In this document: positions 148 to 21,877 of the stretch, in pieces | Position numbering within the stretch: the first letter of the stretch is position 1 | Layout: every line of letters begins with the position of its first letter | Assembly: GCF_021129305.1 (NCBI RefSeq) | Contig: NZ_JAJOMB010000040.1 | Span: forward strand, 1-36,882 | Origin: Kineosporia babensis | Lineage (GTDB): Bacteria > Actinomycetota > Actinomycetes > Actinomycetales > Kineosporiaceae | DNA: 36,882 nt | Reading direction: 5' to 3' | The notes under the pieces: model-generated | What the model was told of the DNA's origin: nothing | Database searches by the model: none | What the model saw: only the letters and a program-made list of their open reading frames with translations | Translations under genes and position numbers: made by a program

Positions 148-3100
148 GTGGGCGGTGCGGGCAACAAGGAGATCCGGCGTGTTCTGGACGTCGTGGCCGA
201 ACAGAATGAGCGGGTCCTAGCGTCATACGCGGCCGACCCAGGGCTGATCGAGGAACATGCCAACGGCGAGCGGCGGATTGCCCAGGGCGGTTACGGCGAC
301 CGCCAGATTTTCGAGTTGGTGCAGAACGGCGCCGACGAGCTGCGCAATACCCAGCTGGGCGCCATTCACGTCGTCCTGACACCACAGAATCTTTACTGCG
401 CCAACGAGGGAGACCCGGTCACCCCCGAGGGGGCGGAGTCCATTCTCCGGCTGAGCGTCTCGCGGAAACGGGGCGGGCAGATCGGCCGCTTCGGGGTGGG
501 CGTCAAGTCCGTTCTCACGGTGACCGACGCTCCCCAGTTCTTCAGCAAGGACGCGGAGGGTTCGTTCGGTTTCGGCTTTCACCGGGCCTGGTCGCGGGAG
601 ACGATCCTGCAGATTGCCCCCGACGCGAACGAGATGCCGGTCCTGCGTATGGCGCAGATTCTCGACGTCGACGCCCGGCGGGCTCAGGACCCGGTCCTGA
701 ACGAGTTGATGTCCTGGGCCACCACGGTGGTGCGTCTGCCGCTCAAAGCGGAGGCCGTGGCCCGCCTCGCCCTCGACCTAAGGCAGTTCCCGGCGGAGTT
801 CCTGCTCTTCTCCCCTCACGTGGGATCGGTCGTCCTTGAGGACCGCAGTGGGCGCGCACCGGTGACCCGCCAGATCGATCAGAAGGTCAGCGGTGTCACG
901 ACGGATCTGCAGGAAGAGCAGGCCAACGGCGACGACACGACGCACCGCTGGAAGGTCTTCCGCCACCGGCACCGTCCCAGTCCTGATGCCATGAAGGCGG
1001 CCGGCGAGCTGCACAACCGCAACGAGGTGGAGATCGCTTGGGCCGTTCCGGCGGCACGCAGCAGAACCCGCGGTGTCTTCTGGTCCTACTTCCCCACCAA
1101 GTTCGCCACCACTCTGCGTGGAATCCTCAACGCCCCGTGGAAGACCTCGGAGGACCGTCAGGCCATCTTCGACGGCAATGCCTTCAACGAGGAGTTGCTG
1201 CAGGCTGCAGCTGATCTGGTCGTGAGTTCTCTGCCCATGCTGGCGACCGACGAGGACCCCGGTCTCTACCTGGACTACCTGCCTGGTCGTGGCCGCGAAG
1301 CGCCCCAGTTCGCCGACGAGCGGTTGACGGCCGCCATCTATGCGCGAGCGGCCCACGAACCGTCAGTGATCGACCAGGACGGCCGCTTCCGGCTGCCGGC
1401 AGAACTGCGCCAACCGCCGAAAGACCTCCTGGACGAGTATCTGAAGGCCTGGGCCGCCTACCCGGACCGTCCCCGGGACTGGACTCACCCACTTACCGAG
1501 GCGACGGACCGGCGCGCTCGGGTGACCCTGATCATGAGTCGTGCGGGCCGGGAACCTGCGACTGTCACCGAATGGCTGGAGGCCCTGGTCGCCGACGAAA
1601 ACCCCGCTTCCTCGAGCGTGGCCGTCCAGATGGTGGCGCGCATGGTGAGCACCAGCAGTCCGTTGGCCGCCGAGGCGGTGCAGGCCAAGATCGTCCTGAC
1701 CCACAGCCACGGCCTGGTCCGTCCGGTGCGAGGCAAGGTCTTCCGTCGGCAGGGCATCAGCGACGCCCTCGCCGAGGACCTGGTGTACGTGCACGACGAG
1801 ATCGCTCAGGCCTTCGGCTTGGGAAGTGCGCTGGATCTGCTGGGTATCAGGGAGGCCGACGGAGCCGGGCGCCTCGCGGCCCTGCTCGATCAGGGCACCG
1901 CGGGCTGGAGCGACGAACAGTGGGAAGCCTTCTGGAGCTTGACCCGGTCCGTAGGGGTCGAACAGCTTCAATCCTTGCTCGGACGGATCCCCTCGCCCGC
2001 GCGTGCCCGATTCAAGGTCGCCACATTGGCGGGAACGTTCCGCGAGATCGGGCAGTGTCTGCTGCCGGGAGTTGTCGTCCCAGGCTCCGGTGGCCCCGAT
2101 GCCGCGTTAACCATCGACATCAAGCACCACGTGGCCGATCGTCACGTACTCGGGCTCCTGGGTGCCTTGGCCGGGCCCGTCGATGCGCAGACACCGGACG
2201 AGGAGCCCTGGTTCGAGGACTATCGCGAGTACGCGTGGAAGGCCTACGTGGCCGGCCTCGATGCTCATGAGGCCCGGCCCCAGGTGAGCACGATGCAGGT
2301 GGAAGGGGCTGCACCGGCGGGACCGTTGCACTTCCTGACCAGCCTCTCGCCCGAGGGCCGAGCAGCCTTCCTGCGAGCGCTGCCGGAGCGCGGGCTGATC
2401 GCGCGATGGAAACGTCAGGTGGGTCGTCAGAAGGGCACGGCTGCTCCCCTGCCCTCACCGCTGGTCTGGATGGCGCGTCGGCACGGGTATCTCAAGACGG
2501 AGGAAGGGGTCCTGCGGGTGCGCGACTGTGTGTCGCCGGCTCTTTCCCGGCACTCGGCCATGCTGCCGGTCGCCGACGTCCCGACCCCGGTGGCAGAGGT
2601 TCTCTCGCTTCCGGCGCGTCTGGAGGACGTGCCTGCGCGAGTGTGGGAACACCTGCTGCGCAGAGCTGTCACCAGCACCGACGATGCTTTCGTGGGGCAG
2701 GCCTACGCGCTGACCCTGACCGGCTCTACGTACTGGCCCGAAGGTGTGGCGACCCGTTGCCGCGTCGGTGAGGACTGGAGCGACCAGTTCCCGGACGATG
2801 AGATCACGGTCACCAGCGACGCCGGTGAGTACGAGGAGTTGCGGGCCGAACGCCTGCCAGCGCTCCTGGCCCCCGACTCCGACAGCGCGGCCCGGATGAT
2901 CGAGGCCTGGGGCATGCGTAGCGCGGCTTCGGTGATCGAGAAGCGGATCCAGGCGGTGGACGAGTCCGATCCGGTCCCGATCCTGGAGATCTTCCCCTAC
3001 CTGCAGATGAAGGGATCCCTCGTCGGACGCCGAACGCTGGTGAAGTGCGAGGCCCTGCAGGAGATCAAGCGCACACCGAACGGGGAACGCTCCGAGGATC

Positions 3101-4812
3101 GCCCCTACGTCGTGCAGGGCGAGGTCGTTCGCGTCCTGAAGCCCGCGGACGACGATCATCTCCTGCAGCAGTTGGACGCCGCTCTGGGCCTGGGGCTCGG
3201 CGACAGTGGTCGTCGTACCGTGCTGGAGCGCAAGGCCCGCCAGGCCCAGTCGGACGTCAAACGTCGTGCCATGCGCGCGGAGTCACGGGAGGAGAAGATC
3301 CTTGAACTGGTCGGCGAGGAAGGACTGAAGGCTGGCCTCCCCGGCGGCCTCCTGGAATCTCACGAGCGCCGTGCAGGACGTAAGGCTCGACCGGCCGAGG
3401 TCGCCAAGCTGTCCCTGGACGCACACGGGGACGGGCTGCTCAGCCGTCACAAGAAGGAGATCGTCCAGCGCATGGGCGATGCCCCGCGCTCGTTCACCGG
3501 CCAGACCAACACCCGTCGCTTCGTGGCGGAGCTGGGACTGCCCGAGTCGTTCGCGGGCCTCGAACCACCAAAGGTGCCTGACTTCGAGGAGGTGGAAGGA
3601 CCGACGGCCTATCCCCGCCTGTACGAATACCAGGAGCTGATCGCTCAGGAGATGGCTGAGGTCCTCACCCGTAACACCCCGAGCCGGGCCATGCTGCGGT
3701 TGCCGACCGGCGCCGGCAAGACCCGCGTCGCGGTCGAGGCCGCGATCCGGGTGGCGAAACAGGAACCCCTCAGAGGGCCGATCCTGTGGATCGCCGAGTC
3801 CGAGGAATTGTGCGAACAGGCCGTGGAGAGCTGGAAGTTCGTCTGGTCCAAGGTGGGACCGCCCGAGAAACTGTCCATCGCTCGACTCTGGGGTGGGCGG
3901 GACGCCTCGCGGGTCGAGCTGAACCCCCACCTCGTCGTGGCCACCGACGCCCAGTTGGTGCGACGCCTCGAGCAGCCCGGTTACCAGTGGCTCCAGCATC
4001 CCGCTTTCGTGATTGTCGACGAGGCGCACCGGGCGATCTCGCGCACCTACACCTCAATCCTCGAGATGCTGGGAATCAGTCACCGCCACACAGCCCGGCC
4101 CCTCATCGGGCTCAGTGCCACTCCTTACCGGACGAACGACGACGAGTCCGACCCGCTACGCAAGCGTTTCGGAGATCGTCTCCTGGGTAAGGACGTCTTC
4201 GGCGGGAAGGATCCCTACGAAGCGCTGCGGGAGCAGGGCATCTTGGCGGATGTCGAGCACCGGCAGATCCGCGGTGGGACCGTAAGCCTTTCGGCCGAGC
4301 AGCTAGATCAGGCCGACACCTTCGAGATTCTGCCGGCGGAGGTCGAACGACAGCTGGGCCGTGACCAGGACCGTAACGACGCACTGATCAAGGAGATCAA
4401 GGGCCTGGACAAGGACTGGCAGATCCTGGTCTTCGCCACCTCGGTCGATCATGCCCGCTACTTGGCTGCGGAGTTGAACGGCCTCGGTATCGCCTCGGGT
4501 GTGATCGACAGCTTCACTCCGGACGGCCAGCGGCGACAGCGCATCGACGACTACCGCAAGCGACGCATCCGGGTCCTGACGAACTACGGCGTCCTGGCTC
4601 AGGGATTCGACGCTCCGGCCACCCGTGCGGTCGTGATCGCCCGACCGACTTACAGCCCGATCCGGTACCAGCAGATGATCGGTCGAGGTCTGCGCGGCCC
4701 ACGCAACGGAGGCGAGAAGGAATGCCTGATCCTCGATGTGAAGGACAACATCGAGAACTTCGGCAAAGAACTGGCCTTCAGCCAGTTCGACCACCTGTGG
4801 GGGAACAAGTGA
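148..4812 (+). CDS. GHKL (sacsin/HSP90-like) ATPase fused to SF2 DEAH helicase, copy A
   Basis: A 1554-aa two-engine protein. The N-terminus has an HSP90/sacsin-type ATP pocket: N-box ELVQNGAD near residue 55 (catalytic Glu and Asn kept), an ANEG turn near 83 where HSP90 has DxGxG, and a glycine loop GRFGVGVKS near 112. The middle 1000 residues are unassigned. The C-terminus is an SF2 helicase: Walker A PTGAGKT near 1186, DEAH near 1290, SATPYR near 1322 and motif VI QMIGRGLRG near 1509. The GTG start at 148 has an AGGAG-type ribosome site about 10 bases upstream. The stop overlaps the next gene's start (GTGA), so the two are translationally coupled. A paralogue of the same architecture lies four genes downstream. 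By analogy with neighbouring DISARM-like genes it is likely a DNA-acting anti-phage motor; that role is inference. Confidence 0.85.
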   Translation: MGGAGNKEIRRVLDVVAEQNERVLASYAADPGLIEEHANGERRIAQGGYGDRQIFELVQNGADELRNTQLGAIHVVLTPQNLYCANEGDPVTPEGAESILRLSVSRKRGGQIGRFGVGVKSVLTVTDAPQFFSKDAEGSFGFGFHRAWSRETILQIAPDANEMPVLRMAQILDVDARRAQDPVLNELMSWATTVVRLPLKAEAVARLALDLRQFPAEFLLFSPHVGSVVLEDRSGRAPVTRQIDQKVSGVTTDLQEEQANGDDTTHRWKVFRHRHRPSPDAMKAAGELHNRNEVEIAWAVPAARSRTRGVFWSYFPTKFATTLRGILNAPWKTSEDRQAIFDGNAFNEELLQAAADLVVSSLPMLATDEDPGLYLDYLPGRGREAPQFADERLTAAIYARAAHEPSVIDQDGRFRLPAELRQPPKDLLDEYLKAWAAYPDRPRDWTHPLTEATDRRARVTLIMSRAGREPATVTEWLEALVADENPASSSVAVQMVARMVSTSSPLAAEAVQAKIVLTHSHGLVRPVRGKVFRRQGISDALAEDLVYVHDEIAQAFGLGSALDLLGIREADGAGRLAALLDQGTAGWSDEQWEAFWSLTRSVGVEQLQSLLGRIPSPARARFKVATLAGTFREIGQCLLPGVVVPGSGGPDAALTIDIKHHVADRHVLGLLGALAGPVDAQTPDEEPWFEDYREYAWKAYVAGLDAHEARPQVSTMQVEGAAPAGPLHFLTSLSPEGRAAFLRALPERGLIARWKRQVGRQKGTAAPLPSPLVWMARRHGYLKTEEGVLRVRDCVSPALSRHSAMLPVADVPTPVAEVLSLPARLEDVPARVWEHLLRRAVTSTDDAFVGQAYALTLTGSTYWPEGVATRCRVGEDWSDQFPDDEITVTSDAGEYEELRAERLPALLAPDSDSAARMIEAWGMRSAASVIEKRIQAVDESDPVPILEIFPYLQMKGSLVGRRTLVKCEALQEIKRTPNGERSEDRPYVVQGEVVRVLKPADDDHLLQQLDAALGLGLGDSGRRTVLERKARQAQSDVKRRAMRAESREEKILELVGEEGLKAGLPGGLLESHERRAGRKARPAEVAKLSLDAHGDGLLSRHKKEIVQRMGDAPRSFTGQTNTRRFVAELGLPESFAGLEPPKVPDFEEVEGPTAYPRLYEYQELIAQEMAEVLTRNTPSRAMLRLPTGAGKTRVAVEAAIRVAKQEPLRGPILWIAESEELCEQAVESWKFVWSKVGPPEKLSIARLWGGRDASRVELNPHLVVATDAQLVRRLEQPGYQWLQHPAFVIVDEAHRAISRTYTSILEMLGISHRHTARPLIGLSATPYRTNDDESDPLRKRFGDRLLGKDVFGGKDPYEALREQGILADVEHRQIRGGTVSLSAEQLDQADTFEILPAEVERQLGRDQDRNDALIKEIKGLDKDWQILVFATSVDHARYLAAELNGLGIASGVIDSFTPDGQRRQRIDDYRKRRIRVLTNYGVLAQGFDAPATRAVVIARPTYSPIRYQQMIGRGLRGPRNGGEKECLILDVKDNIENFGKELAFSQFDHLWGNK

Positions 4813-6641
4813 CCGGTCACGGCGAGCAGGTCGACCTCACCGCCGAACAGACGAAGGTCGTGCAGCTACCGGCAGACGCACTGGCCGTGGTCACGGCGTG
4901 CGCGGGCGCCGGCAAGACGACGACGCTGGCCCGGCGGGTCGAGTGGCTGATCTCAGAACTGGACGTCTCACCGGGAAACATCCTGGTGCTGAGCTTCTCC
5001 CGGGCAGCAGTGGCCCGGCTGCAGAAGGCCTTCATCGGCCAGGAACGTCCGCCCCGGGCCAAGACGTTCGACAGCTGGGCCCTCGAACTGCTGGTCAACG
5101 TCGCTCCCGAGGGCGCTTGGGCCTCGTCCTCCTTCGAGGAGCGGATCACCCAGGCCACCCAGCTGATCAGCTCCGGCGAGGCGGACGACTACCTGTCCGA
5201 GATCCAGCACGTCCTCGTCGACGAGACCCAGGACCTCGTCGGCGCCCGCCGTGCTCTGGTGGAGTCGCTGTTGCACCGCATGGAGCTGGGTTTCACCGTG
5301 GTGGGTGACCTGGCCCAGTCCATATATGGCTTTCAGACCGAGCTCGCCCTGCGCGCGTCAGAGACCGGAGCCTTCCTGCGTGGCCTGCGCCAAGAGTTCG
5401 GGAGCGGCCTGCTCGAGTTGGAGCTCAGCGACAACTTCCGGGCCAGAACCACGGTCGCCAAAGCGGCGCTGCCCCTCGCACCGCAGTTGCTCTCGATGGC
5501 TGAGGGACGATCCTCGCTCACCCCGTCCCGGCTGTATGCAGACCTGCGCGACGTACTCCTGGATCGACTCGCGATCGAGTCGCTGAACGAACCGATGCTG
5601 GCGGACCTGCTGCGTCAGACGCCGGACTGCGCGGTTCTGACCAGGACGAACGGGCAGGCGCTGCAGGTCGCCGATGCTCTGCATGAGCAAGGCGTACCCC
5701 ATCAGTTGCGTGGCGACTTCCGGGACCGGGCCGTCCCGGCCTGGATCGCTCGGTTGTTCCGTTCCGGTGTCCGGGTCCTCACCCGCGAGGCCTTCGACGA
5801 TCTTGCCCCGCAGGCCGACGTAGAAACCGCGTGGCGGCTTCTGCTGCGGGCCGCGCCGGCCTCCGGTCGACGCAGCCTCGACCTGTCCAGACTCTCCGAG
5901 CTCATCGCCCAGCAACGTCTTCCGGACGAGCTGCGGGAGGACCCGGATGCCCAAGGCGTGGTCATCTCGACCATGCACCGCGCCAAGGGCCTGGAGTTCA
6001 ACCTGGTCATCGTGACGGACCCGGGAGCGGCACAGCCGGATCGACCGGACTGGGATCCTGCCGAGGAAGCCCGTCTTCTTTACGTCGGTCTGACTCGGGC
6101 CCGTGAGAACATCCTGCGTCTGGCGCTGCGTAAGCCCGGCTGGGACTTCGCGGTCAGGCAGGCACCCGGCACGAACCGATGGGGCAGAACCGGCAGGCAG
6201 AAATACTTTCGGACCGGCCTTCAGATCGGACCGGGTGACGTACATGTCGAGGACCCGGCAGGTACGTATTTGCTCGACGGCTCTGCCTCGGCTCTGCAGG
6301 AATACCTCGAGCACGAGGTGGCAGCTGGCGATGAGGTGGACCTGGACATCGTCGGGCTCGAACCGATGGGAGGGCCGGTCTACTCAATCACCCACCGTGG
6401 CCAGGGCATCGGGGTTACGTCCGAGCAGTTCGGGCGGGATATGACCCGATGGTTGGGGCTCGGCAAACGCGTTCCACGAGCCCTTCGCTGCGTGCGTATC
6501 GCCCAGGTGGAAAGCGTTGCCGGACGAGAGGCCGCCGGAAACCGAGCCGGCCTCGAAACATCGGGAATCTGGCTGGCGCCACGCCTGACCGGTCTGGCGC
6601 GCTTCACGTTCGACAAGTCCGAGGAGGACGACCGTGGCTGA
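4809..6641 (+). CDS. UvrD/Rep-type SF1 helicase, compact
   Basis: A 610-aa superfamily 1 DNA helicase. Visible motifs in order: Q-motif LTAEQTKVV, Walker A ACAGAGKTTT, motif Ia LSFSRAAVARL, motif II VLVDETQDL, motif III VVGDLAQSIYGFQ, motif IV LSDNFRA, motif V STMHRAKGLEF and motif VI LYVGLTRARENI. It is shorter than UvrD or PcrA (about 720 aa) and ends in about 150 residues after motif VI with no recognised domain and no nuclease motif seen. The frame is open upstream of 4809, but the GTG at 4809 overlapping the previous stop is preferred because it starts just before the Q-motif. The last eight bases overlap the DrmA-like gene. It probably unwinds or translocates on DNA as part of the same defence complex (inference from coupling). 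Confidence 0.88.
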   Translation: MTGHGEQVDLTAEQTKVVQLPADALAVVTACAGAGKTTTLARRVEWLISELDVSPGNILVLSFSRAAVARLQKAFIGQERPPRAKTFDSWALELLVNVAPEGAWASSSFEERITQATQLISSGEADDYLSEIQHVLVDETQDLVGARRALVESLLHRMELGFTVVGDLAQSIYGFQTELALRASETGAFLRGLRQEFGSGLLELELSDNFRARTTVAKAALPLAPQLLSMAEGRSSLTPSRLYADLRDVLLDRLAIESLNEPMLADLLRQTPDCAVLTRTNGQALQVADALHEQGVPHQLRGDFRDRAVPAWIARLFRSGVRVLTREAFDDLAPQADVETAWRLLLRAAPASGRRSLDLSRLSELIAQQRLPDELREDPDAQGVVISTMHRAKGLEFNLVIVTDPGAAQPDRPDWDPAEEARLLYVGLTRARENILRLALRKPGWDFAVRQAPGTNRWGRTGRQKYFRTGLQIGPGDVHVEDPAGTYLLDGSASALQEYLEHEVAAGDEVDLDIVGLEPMGGPVYSITHRGQGIGVTSEQFGRDMTRWLGLGKRVPRALRCVRIAQVESVAGREAAGNRAGLETSGIWLAPRLTGLARFTFDKSEEDDRG

Positions 6642-9600
6642 TCACGGCGAGCACTATCGCTTCCGCGCCCAGCTGGCCCAGCGGGTGACCGAGGACCTGG
6701 TCGGACCGGCCGGCGGCGAGTACGAAGAGATCGAGGAGGAACCCGCCAACGCCTACGTCGTCGGTGTCCTGCACCCGCAGGCCGACCTGGGCCAGGGCAT
6801 CAAGAACGCGGTCCAGGACTTCGACGAGACCGCTGGCGACGAGGCACGCGACGATGTCGTCGACGACGCGGTCCCTCTGGCCAACCGGGTTCTCCCCTCG
6901 GCGCTGGGCCTGACGTTCGCGGTCGATCTGGCCAAGGCAACCCGTGTCCTTCTCACGGTGAGCTCAGGACGCTACGAGGCCGTGAACAGCAAGGGTGAGC
7001 CGGTGGAGCCTCGACGCGCCGAGCGTAGGACCATCGAGACCTCGCAGTACCGCTGGCGCAGGCGTCCGTGGACCCCGGAGGCGTTTGCAGTCGATGTCTC
7101 GACACCGGGTGACCAGCCTTTTCCGTTCCCCGACGTGGACGCCGAGGTCCGGGTCCGGTGCCGTCCGGCACTGGACGGGATCGTCTCGGTCACCGTCTCA
7201 CTCATCAACCGGGCGAAGGTCGCCCGTGACGTCCTCATGGACGGTTCCTGCCTCTTCCAGCCTCAGATCGTGATCACGGTCGAGGGTGGCGCCCCGGCGC
7301 TGGCCGAGCGTCCACGGGTCGCCGCCACCGACGACGAGACGCGGCGCAGTGACATGTTCTACCGGCACGCACCACTTTTCGCTGTCGGTCACGCCTGCGC
7401 CGCTCGGTGGACCTGGGATCCCCCGGCGCCGGGTAAGGCAGGTGTCGGGGGAACTGCGCACTGCGCCGAGGTCTCCACAGCTCTCGTGCCGCTGCACGAA
7501 CTGATGCTGACCGACGCCAACCCCGCGGTCGACGTCCCCCGGATGCAATGGCTCGCTCGGGCCGAGAAGTCCGAGGTCCTGAACGCGCTCACCTCTCTGG
7601 TCGCCGGCTACCGCACCTGGATCGATGGAGACCTCACGGCCCAGCAACGCGACCTGGTGGGCTCTCGTTTCGCCCAGGTCGCACAGGAGCAGGTCGATGC
7701 CTGCCGGGAGACCTTGGCCCGGATGGAGACCGGCATCCAGATCCTCGGGGACGAGACCCGCCCCGAGATCTGGCAGGCCTTCCGTCTGAGTAACCAGGTC
7801 ATGGCCGAGCAACGGGCCCGGACCGTCTGGATCCGTGACGGCGGCGAAGGTCAACCTGACCTTTCCGCCCCACGCTGGCGGGCCTTCCAGATCGGCTTCT
7901 TCCTGCTGTGCCTGCGGGGCATCGTCGAACCGGAACACGAGGACCGCGAGATCGCCGACGTACTGTGGTTCCCGACCGGCGGTGGTAAGACCGAGGCCTA
8001 CCTGGGTTTGGTCGCCTTCACAACATTCCTGCGAAGGATCCGGGCATCTCGCCGTGGACAACCCCAGACCGGGGGCGGGGTCACCGTCCTAATGCGGTAC
8101 ACGCTCAGACTGCTGACCCTGCAGCAGTTCGAGCGAGCAGCAGCACTGATCTGCGCCATGGAGGACGTCCGTCGCCGAGAAACCTCATCTCTGGGCGAGG
8201 AGGAGATGTCGATCGGTATGTGGGTGGGGAAGGCCGCCACCCCCAATAAGCTCGCGCAGGCCCAGACGAGCCTGGCTGCCCTGGCCGACCGCAAGCAGCT
8301 GACCAAACTCAACCCGGTCCAGTTGCGCACATGCCCCTGGTGCGGTCACGAGATGGACCACACCGACTACCAAGTCATCAGCGAACTGAACCGGCTGTCC
8401 ATCACCTGCCCCAACCCGCGGTGCACGTTCCACGACGGGCTTCCGGTGCACGTCGTGGACGAGACGATCTATGCCGCCAGGCCGACCCTGCTGATCGCCA
8501 CGGCCGACAAGTTCGCCCAGGTCGCCTGGCGCGGAGAAGTCGCGAACCTGTTCAACCGGGCCGGCGCCCCTGAGGGGACACCGCCGCCCGAGTTGGTGAT
8601 CCAGGACGAACTGCACCTGATCTCAGGGCCTCTGGGATCTCTAGCCGGACTCTACGAAGCTGCGGTGGACATCGCGGCCGAGCGCCCCAAGATCGTGGCC
8701 TCGACCGCGACCATCCGTCGTGCCGATGAGCAGGGGCGAGCTCTGTTCGACCGTCGCGTGCGACAGTTCCCACCGGCCGGGCTCGACGCCCGTGATTCCT
8801 GGTTCGCTGTCGAAAGATCCCGCGAGGACAAGGCGACGCGCCTGTATGTCGGGGTGATGACCTCCAGCACGAGCCAGGCGACTCTGCTCATCCGCACCTA
8901 CGCGGCTCTGCTGCACCATGCCAAGGTGCTCGAAGGCCCAGACCGGGTCAGAGACGCCTACTGGACTCTGGTCGGCTACTTCAACAGTCTGCGCCTACTC
9001 TCGGCCGCCGAGCTCCAAGTCAACTCCGACGTCGATGAGCGACTGCAGCAGTTGGCTTTCCGGGACCAGGTCGACATGCGCCTGGTCCAGAACCTGTCCG
9101 AACTGACCAGCCGCAAGGACTCCAGCAAGATCCCAGAGTATCTCAAGGAACTGTTCGAGGAGTACGGCAGCGAGCGCGAGATTGACGTCCTGCTGGCAAC
9201 CAACATGATCTCGGTCGGCGTGGACGTCGAGCGGCTGGGCCTGATGGCCGTGATGGGGCAGCCGCAGGCGACAGCCGAGTACATCCAGGCGACCAGTCGG
9301 GTCGGCCGGCGCGACCCCGGCCTGGTCCTGGTGATGCTGAACTCAAACCGGTCACGTGACCGGTCGCACTACGAGAACTTCGCCGGATACCACTCCGCGC
9401 TCTACCGTCAGGTGGAGTCGACCAGTGTCACCCCGTGGGCCTCCCGAGCACGGGACCGGGCACTGCACGCTGTCCTCGTGGGCCTGCTGCGGCTACGTCA
9501 TCCCGAAGCCCGTCCCAACGCGGCCGCCGCACAGATCGCCGACTTCCTGCCCCAGGCGCAGCAGGTCGTGGACGAGATCGTGGAGCGGGTCAGGACGTCC

Positions 9601-9861
9601 TCGAACCTGAGCCAGGACGAACACATTAAGCAGTTGGCCGATGCGGTCCGCTCAGAGCTGGAGGACTTCCTACAGGACTGGGTTGATCGGGCCGATTCCG
9701 ATCCTTTGGTCTACGAAGCCGGGAACAAGAGCTGGAACGGGAAGCGCGGACCTGCCTTACTGAAGGCGTTCGGCCAGGATGACGACCTGGTCAATGCGCA
9801 GGACACGATGTGGAGCATGCGCGACGTCGACGTCGAGTGCTCCGTTTACCTGGAGCGATGA
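6634..9861 (+). CDS. drmA: DrmA-like DISARM helicase (YprA-related SF2)
   Basis: A 1075-aa SF2 helicase of the DISARM DrmA type. It shows the family's unusual motifs: Walker A WFPTGGGKTEAY near residue 447, motif II as DELHLISGPLG (DELH instead of DEAH) near 658, ASTATIRRA near 689, ISVGVDVERLG near 862 and QATSRVGRRDPG near 888. A CxxC...CxxxxC cluster (CPWCG at 567, CPNPRC about 30 residues on) is a probable zinc site between the helicase motifs. The GTG start at 6634 lies inside the end of the UvrD gene. The DUF1998 partner follows after four bases. In known DISARM systems DrmA pairs with DrmB to engage DNA ends or single-stranded DNA and block phage replication. The family call is firm; membership in a canonical DISARM class is not. 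Confidence 0.88.
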   Translation: MADHGEHYRFRAQLAQRVTEDLVGPAGGEYEEIEEEPANAYVVGVLHPQADLGQGIKNAVQDFDETAGDEARDDVVDDAVPLANRVLPSALGLTFAVDLAKATRVLLTVSSGRYEAVNSKGEPVEPRRAERRTIETSQYRWRRRPWTPEAFAVDVSTPGDQPFPFPDVDAEVRVRCRPALDGIVSVTVSLINRAKVARDVLMDGSCLFQPQIVITVEGGAPALAERPRVAATDDETRRSDMFYRHAPLFAVGHACAARWTWDPPAPGKAGVGGTAHCAEVSTALVPLHELMLTDANPAVDVPRMQWLARAEKSEVLNALTSLVAGYRTWIDGDLTAQQRDLVGSRFAQVAQEQVDACRETLARMETGIQILGDETRPEIWQAFRLSNQVMAEQRARTVWIRDGGEGQPDLSAPRWRAFQIGFFLLCLRGIVEPEHEDREIADVLWFPTGGGKTEAYLGLVAFTTFLRRIRASRRGQPQTGGGVTVLMRYTLRLLTLQQFERAAALICAMEDVRRRETSSLGEEEMSIGMWVGKAATPNKLAQAQTSLAALADRKQLTKLNPVQLRTCPWCGHEMDHTDYQVISELNRLSITCPNPRCTFHDGLPVHVVDETIYAARPTLLIATADKFAQVAWRGEVANLFNRAGAPEGTPPPELVIQDELHLISGPLGSLAGLYEAAVDIAAERPKIVASTATIRRADEQGRALFDRRVRQFPPAGLDARDSWFAVERSREDKATRLYVGVMTSSTSQATLLIRTYAALLHHAKVLEGPDRVRDAYWTLVGYFNSLRLLSAAELQVNSDVDERLQQLAFRDQVDMRLVQNLSELTSRKDSSKIPEYLKELFEEYGSEREIDVLLATNMISVGVDVERLGLMAVMGQPQATAEYIQATSRVGRRDPGLVLVMLNSNRSRDRSHYENFAGYHSALYRQVESTSVTPWASRARDRALHAVLVGLLRLRHPEARPNAAAAQIADFLPQAQQVVDEIVERVRTSSNLSQDEHIKQLADAVRSELEDFLQDWVDRADSDPLVYEAGNKSWNGKRGPALLKAFGQDDDLVNAQDTMWSMRDVDVECSVYLER

Positions 9862-9865
9862 GAAC

Positions 9866-11716: not shown

Positions 11717-11721
11717 TCAAT

Positions 11722-11748
11722 CCGCAGGGTGGGCGCACCGCCCTGCGG
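11722..11748 (+). terminator. Possible hairpin after drmB
   Basis: An 8-bp perfect inverted repeat (CCGCAGGG / CCCTGCGG) begins six bases after the drmB stop. There is no T-run, so it may be a weak terminator or a transcript-stabilising or attenuating stem within the operon. The remaining gap to 11912 shows no other gene; GGAGG at 11901-11905 is the ribosome site for the next gene. Confidence 0.4.
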
Positions 11749-11912
11749 ATCTGCGGGCAGCCGCCGTTACTCCGACCGGTGGTGAGCCTCGCCTGGACGG
11801 TGATGTCCGCCCCTCGGACGGCCGATACCCAAGAGCGCCGACATCGCTCGTCCAGCCGTGGTGACCTTCGTGAAGGGGATGGAGAGCGCTTCACGACGAC
11901 GGAGGAACACGT

Positions 11913-14900
11913 ATGCCCCTGGAAGGCTGGGACGGCCCGGACGGCCCGCTGGCACAGCACCTACGGGACGAGATCGAGCGGTCGCTGAAGGCCTACCGGG
12001 AGAAGCCGAAGTCCGTCACCGAGCACGCCAACATCGAGCTGGTGACGGCGCAGGGCGGCTACGGACGCAAGCAGCTCCTGGAGCTCATCCAGAACGGGGC
12101 CGACGCCCTGACCTCCGCCGGCCTTGAGGGCTCGGGACAAGGTCGGATCGAAGCTCGGCTGACCGAAGACTTCCTGTATGTCGCGAACGAAGGCACACCG
12201 CTGACACCGGCCGGCGTTGATGCGTTGACTCTCTCGAACATGTCGGACAAGGCCGACCAACAGATCGGACGCTTCGGACTCGGGTTCAAGTCGGTCGTGC
12301 AGTTGTCCGACTCGGTCGAGATCATCTCGCGCTCGCTCTCGATCCGGTTCGAGCGCGAGTCAGCTCGGCAGCAACTTGAGAGCGTGCTGGGCCCGATCGT
12401 CGGACCGTGGCCGATCCTACGGCTACCCGAGCCGTTCGACCCGAACGACATCGCAGAGCAGGACGAGCACCTGAATGAGCTGATGTCCTGGGCGACGACC
12501 GTGGTCAGACTGCGCCTGCGTGAGAGCAGCGACTGGCTCAGGAATGACTTCACGGAGTTCCCGGGCCAGTTCCTGCTCTTCAGCCCGCAGATCCAGGCCC
12601 TGGTGCTGCGTGACGTCCGCGACGGCGGCCAGGTCCGGCAGTTGGCCGTCATCTCCGATCAAGGCAGCGAGCGTGTGCTGTCCGTCGACGGAAAGTTGAG
12701 CTACTGGAGTGTGCGGATCGAGGAACACAAGCCATCCTCAGCTGCACGCTCGGACGCCGGAAAGATGGCCAAGCGGGACCACATCCGCATGGTCTGGGCG
12801 GTGCCCACGGAGGACCGCACCGGGATCGGACGGCTCTGGGCGTTCTTCCCCACGCATTCGTTCGCCACTCTGGGCGGAATCATCAACGCCCCATGGAAGC
12901 TCAGCCCGGATCGTCAGACCTTGATCGAGGGGACCTTCAACGAGGAACTACTGACAGACGTCCTGCCCAAGCTCGTAGCTTCGAGTGTGCCCGACCTAAT
13001 CGACCACAAGGATCCGGCCAGCATCCTGGACGTCTATCCGGCGCGTGGACGGGAGAGCCGTTCATGGGCGGACGATGTCCTCAACGGACCAGTGGTCAGA
13101 TCTTTGCAACGAACCGCCTGCATCCCGGATGCTTTGGGCGTACTTCGCCTCCCGCACGAGCTGAGAGTGCATCCAGAGGCTCTGAGAGACTCCTGGAAAG
13201 CGCTCTGGCTGGAGGGAGCTCCCCGCCCGGCGCAATGGGTCCACCATAGTATCGATGATCGCGGAGCAGCCGAGCGCAGAGCAAAGGTGGCACGGCTCGC
13301 TGCTTCGGACGAGACGGCCACGATCGCAGAATGGCTGCAGGCGTTGACCTCCGGGCCGGATCCTGTCGTTGGCTCAAAGAATTCACTCCGCCTGGCCAGG
13401 CGCATCATTCGCGAAGAGCCCAAACTTCTGGAGGCGTGCCGGTCGGCCGCCATCGTCCTGACCACCGACGGCAGTCTCGTCCCGCCGATCAAGGGCCGTG
13501 TGTTCCTCGGCGGAACGAGCGATTCCAGTTCCACCACATCGTTCGTCCACCCGGACCTCATCGAGGACCCGGACGTGGTCGAGCTCTTCGAGATGCTGGG
13601 CATCTCGCAGCTGGACCTGGCCGGCACTCTGCACTCGATCCTCGGTGGGATGGACCTGGACCGTCCAGATCCGAGCCAGTGGGAGAAGTTCTGGCGAGCT
13701 TCCGCCCAGATCGACAGCGATCTCGTCCAGAAAATCCTCGGCGAGCACATCGAGGACCCGTGGATGAACTGCCTCGTCAAGACGAAGACCGGTGACTGGA
13801 AATACGCCTCGCAGATCCTGCTACCGGGATCGGTCATCCCCGAAGGCAGCGCGAGCGACGGACATGGGTGCCTGGACAATCAGTTCCACCGAGGCAACCT
13901 ACGGACCCTGCGCGGGATCGGCATGTCCGACCGCCCGGAGCTGCGGGCACCTGGTCTGGACGACGAGTGGTTCGACACGTGGCGGGAACACACGGTTAAT
14001 GCCTACCGGCACGGGTTGCCCAAGGGAGTGAGCGTGCCCAAGCCCGAGAACGTGTCTGTCGACGAGCACCTGATTCCCTCGCACCTCGATCTGCTCAGCA
14101 CCCTTTCCGAATCCGGGAGGGAAGCCATGACTACCATCGTCCTGGCGTTCCTACGTCCGGCGGTCTGGAAGGTCCGGGCCGCCGGACGACCGGAACAAGC
14201 AGTCGCGGACCCCGTGATCGCACTCGTCCTCGAACACGGCCGCATCCCCACGTCCCTCGGACCGCGACAGGCCAGGCAGGCATTCGCGCCTGTCCCTGGC
14301 CTGCCGGAAGACCTCTTCCCCGTGGCGCGCGCAGCCGACCTGCTCCTGGGCGAGCTGATGCAAGGGCTCGAAGACCTGACCCCCGAGGCGTGGTCAGAAC
14401 TGCTGCTCAGCAGGGCTCAGCAAATGTCCACCGATCAGCGCGGTCGCCTGTACGCGCTGGCGGTGAAACACACTGATCCTCCAACCACTCTCTGGGCGGA
14501 GGACCTTGACGGCCAACGTGAGGTTCCTACGACCCAGGCCTGTGCCGTAGCGACCACGGAAGACTTCCACATCCTGCGCGAGCAGGGAATCGCCGTGGTG
14601 AGAGTGAGCAACGCTGCTGAGGCCGAAGAACTTCACACCGCATGGGGTCTCGAACCGGCCGCTCGTCACATCACCTCCGCGATTCACCACGTCCCGTCCC
14701 GGGATCCATTACCGCTGCTGGACCTGCTGCCGGCGCTGCGCGATCACACCAACGACCCCCTGGACCAGTACGAAGTAGTGCCCTGCGAGGAGATCGAGTT
14801 CCGCAGAGTCACACCGGGCGGACAGGAGACCCAGAGAAGGGATTTCCTCCTGCTCGAGGAGCAGATCTACACCGTCGACCTGGAACTCGGTCCGCTGCTG

Positions 14901-16550
14901 AACCGGATCAACACTGAGCTGGGACTCGGGGTCAGCGATGCCTACCAGCAGATCATCGTTCACGAGTCCAGCCGCTCGGCGAACCGCCATCGCACCAAGG
15001 GTGTCCGCGAAGCAAAGAGCGACGACGAGCGCCTCCTGCTTGCGGTCGGTGAGGACGAACTGCGTCGGGCCATACCCGCGGCTGCGATCACTTTGATCGA
15101 GCAAGACGAGGGACCCCTGCGTGGCGTGGAGCTGGCGGCTGCCGCACGGGCAGCGCTAGGCCTTGAGGTACTCACGACCCTCAAGACGGCCCTGGAACGA
15201 CGAGGACTTGAACCGCCCAGCCGGTGGGCCGGTTCCGGGCAGGCCCGCGGGTATGTGACCGACCTCGGATTTGATGCGGAACTGGCGGGCTTCAGCGGCG
15301 GCAATCGCGATGCCATGGTCGATGTCGACGGCCCTGTGCCGCTGCCGGACCTGCACGAGTACCAGGTGCGCGTGGCCGACCGGATCCGACGCGTCCTTCG
15401 CGGTGAGGACAAGTACCACCGGGGCATGGTCTCGCTGCCTACCGGCGCAGGTAAGACCAGGGTGGCGGTGGAGGCTGTCGTTCGTGCAGTGGCCTTCGAG
15501 GGCCTCAGTGGCCCCGTTCTGTGGCTGGCTCAGAGCGACGAGCTCTGCGAGCAGGCCGTGCAGACCTGGTCCCTCATCTGGCGTTCCGTGGGACCACCCG
15601 AGCGGCTACGAGTCAGCAGGCTCTGGGCAGGCAACGACGCCGAACCCTACGAGGACGGCTGCCACGTGGTGGTTGCCACGGACGACAAGATGACGAGCAT
15701 TTTCCGGCGCGATGAGTACCGCTGGCTCCGCGAGGCGAGCGTCGTCATCATCGATGAGGCTCACACGTCCATCTCGCAGTCCTACACCCCTCTTCTGGAA
15801 TGGCTGGGTCGCGGACGTTCCCGCGCATCCGGTAAACCGTTGATCGGCCTTTCCGCGACACCGTTCCGCGGGGTGAGCTCGGAGGAGACCCAGCGTCTGG
15901 TCGGCCGGTACGACAGCAATCTGCTCACGGACGACGCCTTCGAAGGAGACCCTCACGAAGAGCTCCAGGAAATGGGCGTTCTGGCTAGGGTCCGCCACGA
16001 AGTTCTGCAAGGCGCCGAGATCGACCTGAGCGCCGACGAGCTGCGCGAGCTACGGGAACGCCGGCGCGTCGCCCCCTCACTACAGGACCGGCTCGGAAAG
16101 GACGACCGACGCAACCGCACCATCGTGGAGTCCATCCTCGAACTTCCTTCCGACTGGACTGTCCTGCTCTTCGCGCCCTCGGTGGACAGCGCTCGCGCTC
16201 TTGCCGCGGTCCTGAGCCATAAAGGCGTTCCAGCAATGGCCGTCTCGGGCGAGACAGACAGGGCAGCGCGCCGCCACTACGTAGACCAGTTCCGCAAGAA
16301 GGAGCTGCGTGTCCTGACCAACTACGGGGTCTTCGCACAAGGTTTCGATGCGCCGGCTGTGCGCGCCGTCTACGTGACCCGGCCTACCTTCACTCCCAAT
16401 CTGTACCAACAGATGATCGGGCGTGGCCTGCGCGGCCCTCTGAACGGCGGTTCCGACGAGGTCCTGATCGTCAACGTCGACGACAACTTCCGCCAGTTCG
16501 GAGAACAATTGGCTTTCCATCACTTCGACTACCTCTGGCAATCCCGCTGA
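11913..16550 (+). CDS. GHKL (sacsin/HSP90-like) ATPase fused to SF2 DEAH helicase, copy B
   Basis: A 1545-aa paralogue of the protein at 148-4812, collinear over its length. GHKL part: N-box ELIQNGAD near residue 57, VANEGTPLTP near 90 and GRFGLGFKS near 119. Helicase part: Walker A PTGAGKT near 1175, IIDEAHTSIS near 1280, SATPFR near 1312 and QMIGRGLRGP near 1500. The clearest matches to copy A are in the two ATPase ends (for example SDELCEQAV against SEELCEQAV); the middle is more divergent. ATG 11913 follows GGAGG by seven bases. The DUF262 gene starts 51 bases after the stop. Retained catalytic residues in both engines argue that neither copy is a decoy. The two copies may form a heteromer or serve different steps; this is inference. 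Confidence 0.86.
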   Translation: MPLEGWDGPDGPLAQHLRDEIERSLKAYREKPKSVTEHANIELVTAQGGYGRKQLLELIQNGADALTSAGLEGSGQGRIEARLTEDFLYVANEGTPLTPAGVDALTLSNMSDKADQQIGRFGLGFKSVVQLSDSVEIISRSLSIRFERESARQQLESVLGPIVGPWPILRLPEPFDPNDIAEQDEHLNELMSWATTVVRLRLRESSDWLRNDFTEFPGQFLLFSPQIQALVLRDVRDGGQVRQLAVISDQGSERVLSVDGKLSYWSVRIEEHKPSSAARSDAGKMAKRDHIRMVWAVPTEDRTGIGRLWAFFPTHSFATLGGIINAPWKLSPDRQTLIEGTFNEELLTDVLPKLVASSVPDLIDHKDPASILDVYPARGRESRSWADDVLNGPVVRSLQRTACIPDALGVLRLPHELRVHPEALRDSWKALWLEGAPRPAQWVHHSIDDRGAAERRAKVARLAASDETATIAEWLQALTSGPDPVVGSKNSLRLARRIIREEPKLLEACRSAAIVLTTDGSLVPPIKGRVFLGGTSDSSSTTSFVHPDLIEDPDVVELFEMLGISQLDLAGTLHSILGGMDLDRPDPSQWEKFWRASAQIDSDLVQKILGEHIEDPWMNCLVKTKTGDWKYASQILLPGSVIPEGSASDGHGCLDNQFHRGNLRTLRGIGMSDRPELRAPGLDDEWFDTWREHTVNAYRHGLPKGVSVPKPENVSVDEHLIPSHLDLLSTLSESGREAMTTIVLAFLRPAVWKVRAAGRPEQAVADPVIALVLEHGRIPTSLGPRQARQAFAPVPGLPEDLFPVARAADLLLGELMQGLEDLTPEAWSELLLSRAQQMSTDQRGRLYALAVKHTDPPTTLWAEDLDGQREVPTTQACAVATTEDFHILREQGIAVVRVSNAAEAEELHTAWGLEPAARHITSAIHHVPSRDPLPLLDLLPALRDHTNDPLDQYEVVPCEEIEFRRVTPGGQETQRRDFLLLEEQIYTVDLELGPLLNRINTELGLGVSDAYQQIIVHESSRSANRHRTKGVREAKSDDERLLLAVGEDELRRAIPAAAITLIEQDEGPLRGVELAAAARAALGLEVLTTLKTALERRGLEPPSRWAGSGQARGYVTDLGFDAELAGFSGGNRDAMVDVDGPVPLPDLHEYQVRVADRIRRVLRGEDKYHRGMVSLPTGAGKTRVAVEAVVRAVAFEGLSGPVLWLAQSDELCEQAVQTWSLIWRSVGPPERLRVSRLWAGNDAEPYEDGCHVVVATDDKMTSIFRRDEYRWLREASVVIIDEAHTSISQSYTPLLEWLGRGRSRASGKPLIGLSATPFRGVSSEETQRLVGRYDSNLLTDDAFEGDPHEELQEMGVLARVRHEVLQGAEIDLSADELRELRERRRVAPSLQDRLGKDDRRNRTIVESILELPSDWTVLLFAPSVDSARALAAVLSHKGVPAMAVSGETDRAARRHYVDQFRKKELRVLTNYGVFAQGFDAPAVRAVYVTRPTFTPNLYQQMIGRGLRGPLNGGSDEVLIVNVDDNFRQFGEQLAFHHFDYLWQSR

Positions 16551-16601
16551 GTGATCCCAGAGGTGTTGACAAGGCTGCACGAACGGGAGGATGAACGCGC
16601 C

Positions 16602-18734
16602 ATGGCCTACAAGACACCGATAACGATCAAGGAGACGCTGGAACGCATCGGGAGCAACGAGTACCTGCTCCCTGCGATCCAACGCGAACTGGTCTGGGCC
16701 CAAGAACCGGAGCGGATGACCCGCCTGTTCGACAGCATCCTGCGCGGCTACCCGATCGGCACGTTCCTGTTCTGGTCAGTACCGGCCGAGCAGTCCCAGC
16801 AGTTCACCTTCTACGAGTTCATGCGCGAATGGCACGAACTCAACCACCGGCACAACGACCGGGTTTCGCTTGATCAGCCGCGTGCACTGACGGCCATCCT
16901 CGACGGCCAACAGCGGCTGAGCACCCTCAACATCGGCCTGCACGGGAGCCTGGCCCACAAACTGCCGGGGCGGCGGGCGAACTCGCTGGAGGCCTATCCC
17001 GTCAAGTACCTGTACGTCGATCTGCTCTACGAACCGGGCGAAGACGACGACGTGCAGTACTCCTTCTCCTTCCTGACCCCGGCCCAGGCTGAAGCGGCCC
17101 CAGAGACGCTTCACTGGTACCGCGTCAGTGACGTTCTCCATCTGTCGGACAACGGGCCGGAAATCTTCGCTTACATCCAGCGGCACGACCTGACGAGTCA
17201 ACGCGCCTTCCATGTGCTCAACCGGCTCTGGCGTTCCATCCACGAAGACCCGGCGATCAACTACTTCGAGGAACGCGAGCAGAGCCTGTCCCGTGTGCTG
17301 GACATCTTCGTGCGGGTCAACAGTGGCGGCGTACAGCTGACCAAGAGCGACCTGCTGCTGTCGATCGCCACCGCCCAGTTCACCGGCCGTGATGCCCGCG
17401 AGGAGATTCACGCCCTGGTGGACGAACTCAACGCCACTTGGCCAGGGTTTCGGTTCACCAAGGACCTCGTGCTCAAATCCGGCCTGGTGCTCACAGACAT
17501 CGGCAACATCAATTTCGCCGTCGGGAACTTCACCGCCAACAACATGGCCGTCCTCGACCAGAAGTGGGACGACGTCGACCGGGCTCTGCGGGTAGCCGTA
17601 AAACTCATCGCATCGTTCGGGTTCTCCGAATCGACGCTTTCGGCGGACAGCGTTCTCGTCCCCATCGCCGACTACGTCTTCACCCGCAAGCTGGACGACA
17701 CGTTCGTGCATTCGACGGACGAAAACGCACGCGCAGACCGAGCCGTCATCCGTCACTGGATGATCCGCGCGCTCCTCAAGCCCGGGATCTGGGGCAGTGC
17801 TCTGAACCAGGTCCTGCGCGCCCTGCATCAGATCATCCGGGACTCACACGGCCGCTTCCCTGTGGAGGCCATCGAGGCCGAACTCGCCCGACGCGGAAAG
17901 TCGCTGACCTTCGACACCGAGTTGATCGAAGATCTTCTGGACACCCCGCACAGAAGCAAGCGGACCTTCGCGCTGCTCACCCTGCTGTACGACTGGATCG
18001 ACGTGCGCAGCGAGTTCCACGTCAACCATATCTTCCCTCGCAGCCTGGCCACCCGGGCCAAGCAGCGTGACCAGGGCATCCCCGAAGGCCAATGGGACAA
18101 GATCACCGACCAGGTCGAACGGCTGGCTAACCTTCAGCTGCTACCCGGCGCGGACAGCGCCAAGAAGCAGGCACAGCTGCCGCTGGAATGGGTACTCACC
18201 CGGTTCTCGGACCCACAGGCTCGCGACGCCTGGCTCGCCGGACATGACCTTTACGACCTGCCTCCCACGCTCGCCGACTTCCCGACCTTCTACGAGATCC
18301 GTCGCGCCACCATGCGCGAGCGCCTACGTCATCTCCTGGGCGTTCAAGCCTCCGAGATCCGTTCCACCGCCGAAGCAGCGCCGGCCCTACCCTTCAGCGA
18401 TCCGGTCGCCCAAGCGGTCGCGCACGTCCCCCGCCCCCGGCGACCCGGAGATCCACAGACCGGCAGCCGTGCCTTCTACGGTCGAGCTGAAGTCCTGGGA
18501 GAAATGCTTGATTCAGGCCTCTTGGAAGTCGGGATGCGCCTGTACGGGGTCTATCGCGGAGACCGATACCACACAGAGATTGGCCCCGGTGGATTTCTCC
18601 GCTGGCAGGGCCGAACTTTCGACAGCCCCACGCAAGCAGCCATCAGGCTCACCGGTCAGCGGTCCGTCAATGGCTGGACCTTCTGGAAACTCCCGGACGG
18701 CACACCGATTGGCGAGCTGCGCTCGCGCGTCTGA
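16602..18734 (+). CDS. DUF262/DUF1524 GmrSD-like protein with RAMA-like C-terminus
   Basis: A 710-aa protein. The DUF262 (GmrS-like, ParB/Srx-fold NTPase) part has the signature ILDGQQRLSTL near residue 100 and FVRVNSGGVQLTKSDLLLS near 236-254. A DUF1524/HNH-type nuclease motif VNHIFPRSL near 472 is followed by LANLQLLPG, as in GmrD. The last 85 residues (GLLEVGMRLYGVYRGD, then FDSPTQAAIRLTG and NGWTFWKL) resemble the RAMA domain thought to read modified DNA bases. The frame is open from GTG 16551, but ATG 16602 behind GGGAGG (16585-16590) fits DUF262 starts. GmrSD enzymes cut modified phage DNA, so this may be the nuclease of the cluster. Domain calls for DUF262 are firm, DUF1524 good, RAMA probable. 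Confidence 0.85.
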   Translation: MAYKTPITIKETLERIGSNEYLLPAIQRELVWAQEPERMTRLFDSILRGYPIGTFLFWSVPAEQSQQFTFYEFMREWHELNHRHNDRVSLDQPRALTAILDGQQRLSTLNIGLHGSLAHKLPGRRANSLEAYPVKYLYVDLLYEPGEDDDVQYSFSFLTPAQAEAAPETLHWYRVSDVLHLSDNGPEIFAYIQRHDLTSQRAFHVLNRLWRSIHEDPAINYFEEREQSLSRVLDIFVRVNSGGVQLTKSDLLLSIATAQFTGRDAREEIHALVDELNATWPGFRFTKDLVLKSGLVLTDIGNINFAVGNFTANNMAVLDQKWDDVDRALRVAVKLIASFGFSESTLSADSVLVPIADYVFTRKLDDTFVHSTDENARADRAVIRHWMIRALLKPGIWGSALNQVLRALHQIIRDSHGRFPVEAIEAELARRGKSLTFDTELIEDLLDTPHRSKRTFALLTLLYDWIDVRSEFHVNHIFPRSLATRAKQRDQGIPEGQWDKITDQVERLANLQLLPGADSAKKQAQLPLEWVLTRFSDPQARDAWLAGHDLYDLPPTLADFPTFYEIRRATMRERLRHLLGVQASEIRSTAEAAPALPFSDPVAQAVAHVPRPRRPGDPQTGSRAFYGRAEVLGEMLDSGLLEVGMRLYGVYRGDRYHTEIGPGGFLRWQGRTFDSPTQAAIRLTGQRSVNGWTFWKLPDGTPIGELRSRV

Positions 18735-21858: not shown

Positions 21859-21874
21859 GCATGAAATGATGCCA

Positions 21875-21877
21875 GCT
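21875..21877. repeat. IS3 target-site duplication, left copy
   Basis: GCT directly left of the IS3 inverted repeat; the same GCT follows the right repeat at 24577-24579. A 3-bp duplication is normal for IS3-family elements. Confidence 0.75.

What the first reader, a model, noticed from the sequence alone, without database searches (positions are those of the whole stretch)
148..18734. Six-gene defence operon that combines a DrmA-DrmB core with two GHKL-helicases, a UvrD helicase and a GmrSD-like protein
Seen: four distinct helicase ATPases plus DUF1998 and DUF262/DUF1524 in one strand-coherent block, with overlaps of 4 and 8 bases, a 4-base gap, then gaps of 196 and 51 bases. Known: DrmA and DrmB define DISARM, which also needs DrmC and class-specific partners (DrmD/DrmMI or DrmE/DrmMII). 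Those partners are not here. Inference: this is a separate or hybrid system in which GHKL-SF2 proteins replace the usual partners and the DUF262 protein supplies the nuclease.
Basis: partly seen in the sequence, partly recalled or inferred. Interest (0 to 1): 0.88.

Follow-up and report, generated by a model that had tools for sequence, protein, structure and literature searches.

The report
Four-helicase DISARM-like phage defence system
Four neighbouring genes for DNA-unwinding machines form a set that recurs in the same order, usually beside DNA-marking enzymes, in many actinobacteria; it looks like a relative of the DISARM anti-virus system in which the usual partner genes are replaced.

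Summary
In detail: six same-strand genes at 148-18734 encode GHKL-SF2, UvrD, DrmA, DrmB, a second GHKL-SF2 and a GmrSD/RAMA protein. The conserved unit is four genes. GHKL-SF2 > UvrD > DrmA > DrmB recurs in 17 of 19 actinomycete loci, 75 of 79 named-genome loci (sets overlap) and one locus from another class. Median junction: 4-nt overlap. Their DrmAs form one clade (SH-aLRT 100) apart from class 1 DISARM. DrmC: 0 hits in these neighbourhoods, 5 of 5 canonical controls positive. Gene 5 was seen at this place only in this genus and gene 6 only here, so the DUF262 nuclease idea is not supported as a general rule. Best reading: a DISARM-branch, methylation-gated defence system with an added MutL/MORC-like GHKL-translocase and a UvrD motor. 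Synteny and clade are shown; defence and mechanism are inferred. New variant of a known kind.

The parts
148..4812 (+). g1: GHKL (sacsin-like ATPase + transducer, model residues ~29-366) - large central region - RadD/ResIII-like SF2 helicase; conserved core gene 1
   Evidence: first gene of the conserved order
4809..6641 (+). g2: UvrD/Rep-type SF1 helicase with an extra C-terminal beta domain; conserved core gene 2 (GTG at 4809, 4-nt overlap with g1)
6634..9861 (+). g3: DrmA-like SF2 helicase, own clade; conserved core gene 3
9866..11716 (+). g4: DrmB (DUF1998/MZB) protein; conserved core gene 4
11913..16550 (+). g5: second GHKL-SF2, from another subfamily; accessory, seen after DrmB only in G000 and G008
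16602..18734 (+). g6: GmrSD_N (DUF262) + weak GmrSD_C + RAMA protein (PADLOC HEC-05); accessory, not found in the relatives' neighbourhoods examined
19202..20341 (-). C5-cytosine DNA methyltransferase; such genes lie within 14 kb in 16 of 19 loci and in the held flanks of 76 of 79 loci
20593..22101 (-). NaeI-type restriction endonuclease, may pair with the methyltransferase; NaeI relatives seen in 3 of 79 loci
24751..25170 (-). Vsr mismatch endonuclease; Vsr seen in 58 of 79 loci

Best explanation
A DISARM-branch anti-phage system with a four-protein core: GHKL-SF2, UvrD, DrmA, DrmB. Shown here: the core is conserved in order and tightly packed; its DrmAs form one clade apart from class 1 DISARM; no DrmC was found beside it; C5 methyltransferase and often Vsr genes lie close by; motor and GHKL motifs are intact. 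Inferred: (1) the linked C5 methyltransferase(s) mark host DNA; (2) DrmAB loads on unmodified 5'-tailed phage DNA, as published for Serratia DrmAB; (3) the GHKL module of g1 acts as an ATP-gated dimerising clamp or loader (as in MutL, MORC, SMCHD1) carrying its own RadD-like translocase; (4) it brings in UvrD to unwind the DNA, as MutL does in mismatch repair; (5) phage DNA is disabled by unwinding and blocked replication, and destroyed by host exonucleases or by a variable nuclease (a NERD-helicase directly follows DrmB in a distant relative). Steps 1-2 are moderately likely; steps 3-5 are speculative.
Against: I found no phage assay of this system. No nuclease was identified in the four core proteins; the central region of g1 (about 370-1139) and the C-terminal domain of g2 (about 450-603) were barely tested by the fold searches. 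The C5 methyltransferases belong to more than one subfamily, and in the window the enzyme sits beside a NaeI endonuclease, so it may be an independent R-M pair. G113 and G302b have no C5 methyltransferase within 14 kb (the one of G302 is about 20 kb away and beside its other copy of the core), L158 and L163 have none in the held flanks. G302b has a type IIG/DrmMI-like methyltransferase instead; for G113 none was shown. UvrD-DrmA-DrmB also occurs without GHKL-SF2 in front (Tsukamurella plasmid; G130), and in G358 GHKL-SF2 goes with a NERD-helicase in place of UvrD and with a DrmA outside the clade: modules are swapped.
Confidence: 0.55

Rival explanations
1. Ordinary DISARM (class 1 or 2) that has lost or unlinked its other genes; GHKL-SF2 and UvrD are incidental defence-island neighbours.
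For: DrmA and DrmB both pass NCBI's DISARM family cut-offs. G116 and G302b have DrmD-like and IIG/DrmMI-like genes right after DrmB and L199 has DrmD. G000 holds a DrmC-like gene elsewhere.
Against: The GHKL-UvrD order is kept in 75 of 79 loci and in another class. The DrmA clade is distinct, SH-aLRT 100. The 6 strong DrmC genes in 18 genomes with GHKL-SF2 all sit next to a different DrmA of 1300+ bits.
Confidence: 0.12
2. A DNA-repair or replication-maintenance operon (MrfA/MutL/UvrD/RadD/Vsr-like), not immunity.
For: The core motors have repair relatives: MrfA zinc domain, RadD and UvrD, GHKL; Vsr is a mismatch enzyme.
Against: Patchy presence (full length in 17 of 394 genomes; 2 of 6 genomes of the genus). 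Closest DrmA relatives sampled are DISARM-type (no repair YprA/MrfA row was included). Neighbours are methyltransferases, NaeI, phage-defence candidate families and transposases.
Confidence: 0.12
3. A modification-dependent restriction cassette in which the linked restriction enzyme or nuclease (NaeI here, NERD-helicase or UvrD694 elsewhere) is the effector and the four motors only process its cuts.
For: NaeI next to the methyltransferase in the window and NaeI relatives in 3 of 79 loci. NERD-helicase directly after DrmB in G568 and in Rhizobium and Azospirillum plasmids. UvrD694 in 8 of 79.
Against: Of the gene families that I screened for, no nuclease but Vsr recurs in most loci, and Vsr is not seen in 21 of 79. 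Only about 3 kb after DrmB is held for the 79, so downstream nucleases may be undercounted.
Confidence: 0.15
4. The six genes of the window work as one unit with the GmrSD/RAMA protein as nuclease.
For: Same strand and short spacing.
Against: g6 not found in the other neighbourhoods examined; second GHKL-SF2 after DrmB only in this genus; the 196-nt gap before g5 differs from the coupled core.
Confidence: 0.05

Closest known systems
DISARM class 1 (DrmD-DrmMI-DrmA-DrmB-DrmC)
   Same: DrmA and DrmB in two adjacent genes; methylation link; G116, G302b, L199 and the Tsukamurella plasmid keep DrmD and/or DrmMI-like genes after DrmB.
   Different: No DrmC found; GHKL-SF2 and UvrD directly before DrmA; DrmA in a separate clade.
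DISARM class 2 (DrmE/DrmMII type)
   Same: C5-cytosine methyltransferase nearby.
   Different: No DrmE hit among the window genes scanned with PADLOC; the C5 enzymes scanned match generic MTase_II or DruM2 profiles better than DrmMII.
ARMADA type II (Bell et al. 2025 preprint, PMC12458937; abstract, passages and sections 5, 7, 8 seen)
   Same: YprA-family helicase plus a GajB/UvrD-like helicase in one multi-motor operon.
   Different: No BrxHII or PglX among the window genes scanned; the DrmB part is a separate gene; no Vsr domain in DrmA by Pfam. The main text has no occurrence of GHKL or sacsin.
[not shown]
   Same: GHKL ATPase + SF2 helicase + C5 methylase + Vsr; the p2MP GHKL protein matches g1 residues 16-974 at 30%.
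   Different: Here GHKL and SF2 are fused, UvrD, DrmA and DrmB are present, and no dedicated endonuclease was found to be constant.
Sacsin/Hsp90/SMCHD1 ATPase modules
   Same: GHKL ATPase fold plus transducer.
   Different: Fused to a RadD-like helicase in a bacterial operon.

Membership tests
DISARM (any class) | DrmA helicase over the NCBIfam cut-off | tested here: met
   983 bits against 950, narrowly; the 17 places of this group score 963-1028, canonical DrmA about 1300-1450
[quoted passage not shown]
   489 bits against 240; adjacent in 75 of 79 loci
DISARM (any class) | DrmC (PLD nuclease) after DrmB | tested here: not met
   five DrmC queries: 0 hits at E<=1e-3 in 22 + 79 neighbourhoods, 5 of 5 canonical loci positive; strong DrmC in 6 of 18 genomes, all at another locus. 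DrmC is reported dispensable in DISARM, so this alone does not exclude it
DISARM class 1 | DrmD and DrmMI in the operon | tested here: not met
   not among the window genes scanned, but upstream is cut by the contig end; present in relatives G116, G302b and in part L199
DISARM class 1 | DrmA within the canonical class 1 clade | tested here: not met
   28 GHKL-UvrD DrmAs fall in their own clade of 30, SH-aLRT 100, quick tree, rows chosen by me
DISARM class 2 | DrmE and DrmMII | tested here: not met
   no DrmE hit in the window genes scanned; methyltransferase matches MTase_II at 302 bits, DrmMII at 66
[quoted passage not shown]
   none among the window genes scanned with Pfam and PADLOC
paraMORC/MORC R-M operon | GHKL ATPase + SF2 helicase + DNA methylase in one neighbourhood | tested here: met
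paraMORC/MORC R-M operon | a restriction-fold endonuclease as a constant partner | tested here: inconclusive
   Vsr in 58 of 79, NaeI in 3 of 79; other endonucleases were not searched systematically
GmrSD type IV restriction | GmrSD_N plus GmrSD_C nuclease domain | tested here: inconclusive
   GmrSD_N 90 bits, GmrSD_C 13 bits against 23
Anti-phage defence | protects cells against phages | not testable with these tools
   needs an assay

The most novel reading that the evidence does not exclude
The GHKL-RadD-like fusion plus UvrD rebuilds a MutL-UvrD-type loader and motor on top of DrmAB: a mismatch-repair-like immune machine that reads missing 5-methylcytosine, clamps phage DNA and destroys its replication by directed unwinding without a nuclease of its own, present in two subtypes (with or without DrmD/DrmMI).
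Probability: 0.25. Interest if true: 0.82.

Novelty: new variant of a known kind. Interest (0 to 1): 0.62.

Why it matters
It extends the DISARM branch with a conserved, widespread actinobacterial core that swaps the usual partners for a sacsin/MORC-like GHKL-translocase and a UvrD motor. That ties two lines of immune theory (DISARM and GHKL-based R-M) together and gives a clean test of how DISARM-type systems work without DrmC.

Tried and rejected
Rejected: six-gene unit and DUF262 nuclease; g5 as a tandem duplicate of g1 (the tree places g5 with the g1 proteins of G116, L199, G293 and G302b, 100/100); canonical DISARM with DrmC elsewhere. The DrmC-like gene of G000 lies at its own DrmA-DrmB locus, C1 about 100.2-106.5 kb.

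Led nowhere: literature searches for TmtA, HEC-05, PDC-M33; a RadD-MutL paper (listing only); finding the missing upstream contig by DNA similarity to G008 (it revealed the window's Vsr instead). The fold searches listed no nuclease match that I could assign to the g1 N-part or g2 outside helicase-nuclease enzymes matched through their helicase parts, but one domain filled each list, so the central part of g1 and the C-terminus of g2 remain untested.

Limits: only the best two candidates per genome were scored. For the 79 loci about 10 kb upstream (less in a few) and about 3 kb (2.1-3.3) after DrmB are held; for the 19 class loci 4-29 kb after DrmB, none for G130. The 19-locus and 79-locus sets overlap (at least 5 contigs have the same length and position). 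In one search the start codon nearest the preceding stop was taken, which favours short overlaps. Genes were called by a simple codon-usage script, which missed UvrD in 3 loci, DrmB in 1 and a methyltransferase in 1; tblastn and Pfam found them. The DrmA and GHKL trees use rows that I chose; the DrmA tree is a quick one without bootstrap and has long branches. Rows dropped: L187 and L192 from A3 (no Walker-A pattern match), L191 from the GHKL set (its frame breaks; it is still counted among the 75), G130's GHKL protein from A1. Four helicase-only matches (G069, G270, G245, G300) were not counted as loci. G130 was not in the methyltransferase count.
Full report
WHAT IS THERE. The window is one whole contig (G000:C35, 36,882 bases), so nothing upstream of base 1 is visible in this assembly. 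Six same-strand genes fill 148-18734. g1 and g5 are GHKL-SF2 proteins of about 1,550 aa, 37% identical. g2 is a UvrD/Rep helicase, g3 DrmA, g4 DrmB, g6 a GmrSD_N protein ending in a RAMA domain. Next, on the minus strand, come a C5-cytosine methyltransferase (19202-20341), a NaeI-type endonuclease (20593-22101) and, behind an rve integrase (22230-22976, +) and a Mutator transposase (23007-24323, +), a Vsr endonuclease (24751-25170).

THE CONSERVED UNIT IS FOUR GENES. P0005 was searched in 394 genomes of the class; 21 had a match at E<=1e-30, 17 of them full length. With same-genus G008 I examined 19 full-length GHKL-SF2 loci in 18 genomes. In 17 of 19 the order GHKL-SF2 > UvrD > DrmA > DrmB is exact. 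The exceptions are G358, where a NERD-helicase fills the UvrD slot, and G130, where GHKL-SF2 lies at a contig end and UvrD-DrmA-DrmB about 30 kb away. Among 79 loci from named genomes (the best of 354 relatives), 75 show the same order; two more are cut by contig ends (L137, L161); L175 (the contig of G130 by length) and L184 (a second GHKL-SF2 beside the complete system L163 of Actinoplanes) do not. Of 396 genomes of the phylum, 4 matched P0001 at E<=1e-100, own genome included; one, G568, is from another class and reads C5 methyltransferase (-), Vsr, GHKL-SF2, UvrD, DrmA, DrmB, NERD-helicase. Median junctions in the 75 loci are -4 nt at all three joints (exact 4-nt overlap in 65, 58 and 48 of 75; start-codon caveat under Tried and rejected).

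AN INDEPENDENT LOOK BY DrmA. NF038325 was searched in 388 class genomes; 64 matched at E<=1e-20. Scores fall into bands: canonical about 1300-1450 bits; a second of 17 places at 963-1028 bits; and lower ones. Sixteen of the 17 have GHKL-SF2 and UvrD directly upstream; the other is G130. In a 58-row DrmA tree the 28 rows labelled GHKL-UvrD fall in one clade of 30, SH-aLRT 100; the two extra rows are G130 and the Tsukamurella plasmid, both with UvrD upstream. The 8 class 1 rows group elsewhere (91). G358's DrmA falls outside the clade, so GHKL-SF2 has been joined to a different DrmA at least once.

PARTNERS. DrmC follows DrmB at canonical loci. Five DrmC queries gave 0 hits at E<=1e-3 in 22 + 79 neighbourhoods and hits in 5 of 5 canonical loci. 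Across 18 genomes with GHKL-SF2, one DrmC profile gives strong matches (over 100 bits) in 6, all six next to canonical DrmA genes; 5 have only weak matches, 7 none. The weak match of G000 on C1 belongs to a separate DrmA-DrmB-DrmC-like locus. C5 methyltransferases lie within 14 kb in 16 of 19 loci (15 by clustering, plus G293), while 63 match pieces in 127 Mb of 17 genomes predict about 0.014 per 28 kb. In the held flanks of the 79 loci: C5 methyltransferase 76, Vsr 58, HTH protein of about 709 aa 69, DUF6339 68, UvrD694 8, NaeI 3, DrmD 1, DrmMI 1 (only families that I used as queries). The divergent block HTH709-p397-DUF6339 stands complete upstream in 67 of 79. A smaller subgroup (G116, G302b, L199, Tsukamurella plasmid) carries DrmD and/or DrmMI-like genes after DrmB. 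So there are probably two subtypes, one with DrmD/DrmMI, one without. The window is the second kind; its extra g5 belongs to the GHKL-SF2 subfamily that includes the first (100/100), and this is the truly hybrid feature of the window.

HOW IT LIKELY WORKS. Bravo et al. 2022 (PMC9142583, passages seen) report that DrmAB binds 5'-tailed DNA, that its ATPase is reduced by 5-methylcytosine, and that DrmC appears non-essential. Iyer et al. 2008 (PMC2292703, passages seen) predicted R-M operons with GHKL ATPases, SF2 helicases, C5 methylases and Vsr, and drew the parallel to MutL, which interacts with UvrD. The present core combines both sets. The best reading is self-marking by C5 methylation, DrmAB loading on unmarked phage DNA, and a GHKL clamp-translocase plus UvrD that unwind it. 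No nuclease is known in the core; NERD-helicase genes after DrmB in G568 and in Rhizobium and Azospirillum plasmids suggest that a nuclease may be supplied differently in different lineages. All of this beyond the genetics is inference.

NOVELTY. Ten literature searches in the held open-access library showed no title or abstract start that describes this combination; of the papers listed I opened passages or sections of five (PMC12458937, PMC9142583, PMC2292703, PMC3710099, PMC8565338). The most relevant, Bell et al. 2025 (PMC12458937), has no occurrence of GHKL or sacsin in its main text; its supplements were not seen. Subscription papers and most preprints are not held, so an existing description cannot be excluded. 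Automatic annotation would probably call g3 and g4 DISARM parts (inference). I rate it a new variant of a known kind.

Noticed in passing
relatives: e.g. L048:11087-15014 (-) and 67 of the 79 loci, upstream of GHKL-SF2: A divergent three-gene block (HTH protein of about 709 aa, 397-aa orphan, DUF6339) stands upstream of the core in 67 of 79 loci; two of the three match PADLOC candidates PDC-M33A and PDC-M33C. The window cannot show it because its contig ends; in G008 a homologue of the HTH protein lies 7.3 kb upstream.
   Followed up: partly
window 22230-24323: An rve integrase and a Mutator-family transposase sit between the NaeI and Vsr genes, which suggests that a methyltransferase-NaeI-Vsr block was interrupted.
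   Followed up: no
window 33144-36881 (-): A 1,245-aa RHS/YD-repeat protein open at the contig end.
   Followed up: no
L031:1011-2747 (+), G008 just upstream of g1: A 578-aa GHKL ATPase with a C-terminal Ymh domain diverges from the core in G008; paraMORC-Ymh fusions in R-M neighbourhoods are described in PMC3710099 (passage seen).
   Followed up: no
L118:14747-16141 (Tsukamurella plasmid NZ_LR134452.1): In place of GHKL-SF2, before UvrD-DrmA-DrmB-DrmD-DrmMI, there is a 464-aa protein with a RelA/SpoT domain.
   Followed up: partly
L204, L205 (Rhizobium and Azospirillum plasmids): UvrD-DrmA-DrmB-NERD-helicase operons in Alphaproteobacteria, a further DISARM-like arrangement.
   Followed up: partly
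L098-L107, L109: A third DrmA group of actinomycetes without GHKL-SF2 beside it, some with UvrD694, C5 methyltransferases or a small SF1 helicase after DrmB.
   Followed up: partly
[not shown]
   Followed up: partly
L210 (Oscillatoria plasmid pOSC7112.01): Genes annotated as dnaN, dnaX and holA directly follow a class 1 DrmA-DrmB pair.
   Followed up: no
L040, G302a DrmB: DrmB of G302a matches in two overlapping pieces in different frames, so it may be frameshifted.
   Followed up: no
L212:4890-7955 (-), G000 contig C78: Another GHKL protein of 1,021 aa in the same genome, matching PADLOC TmtA.
   Followed up: no
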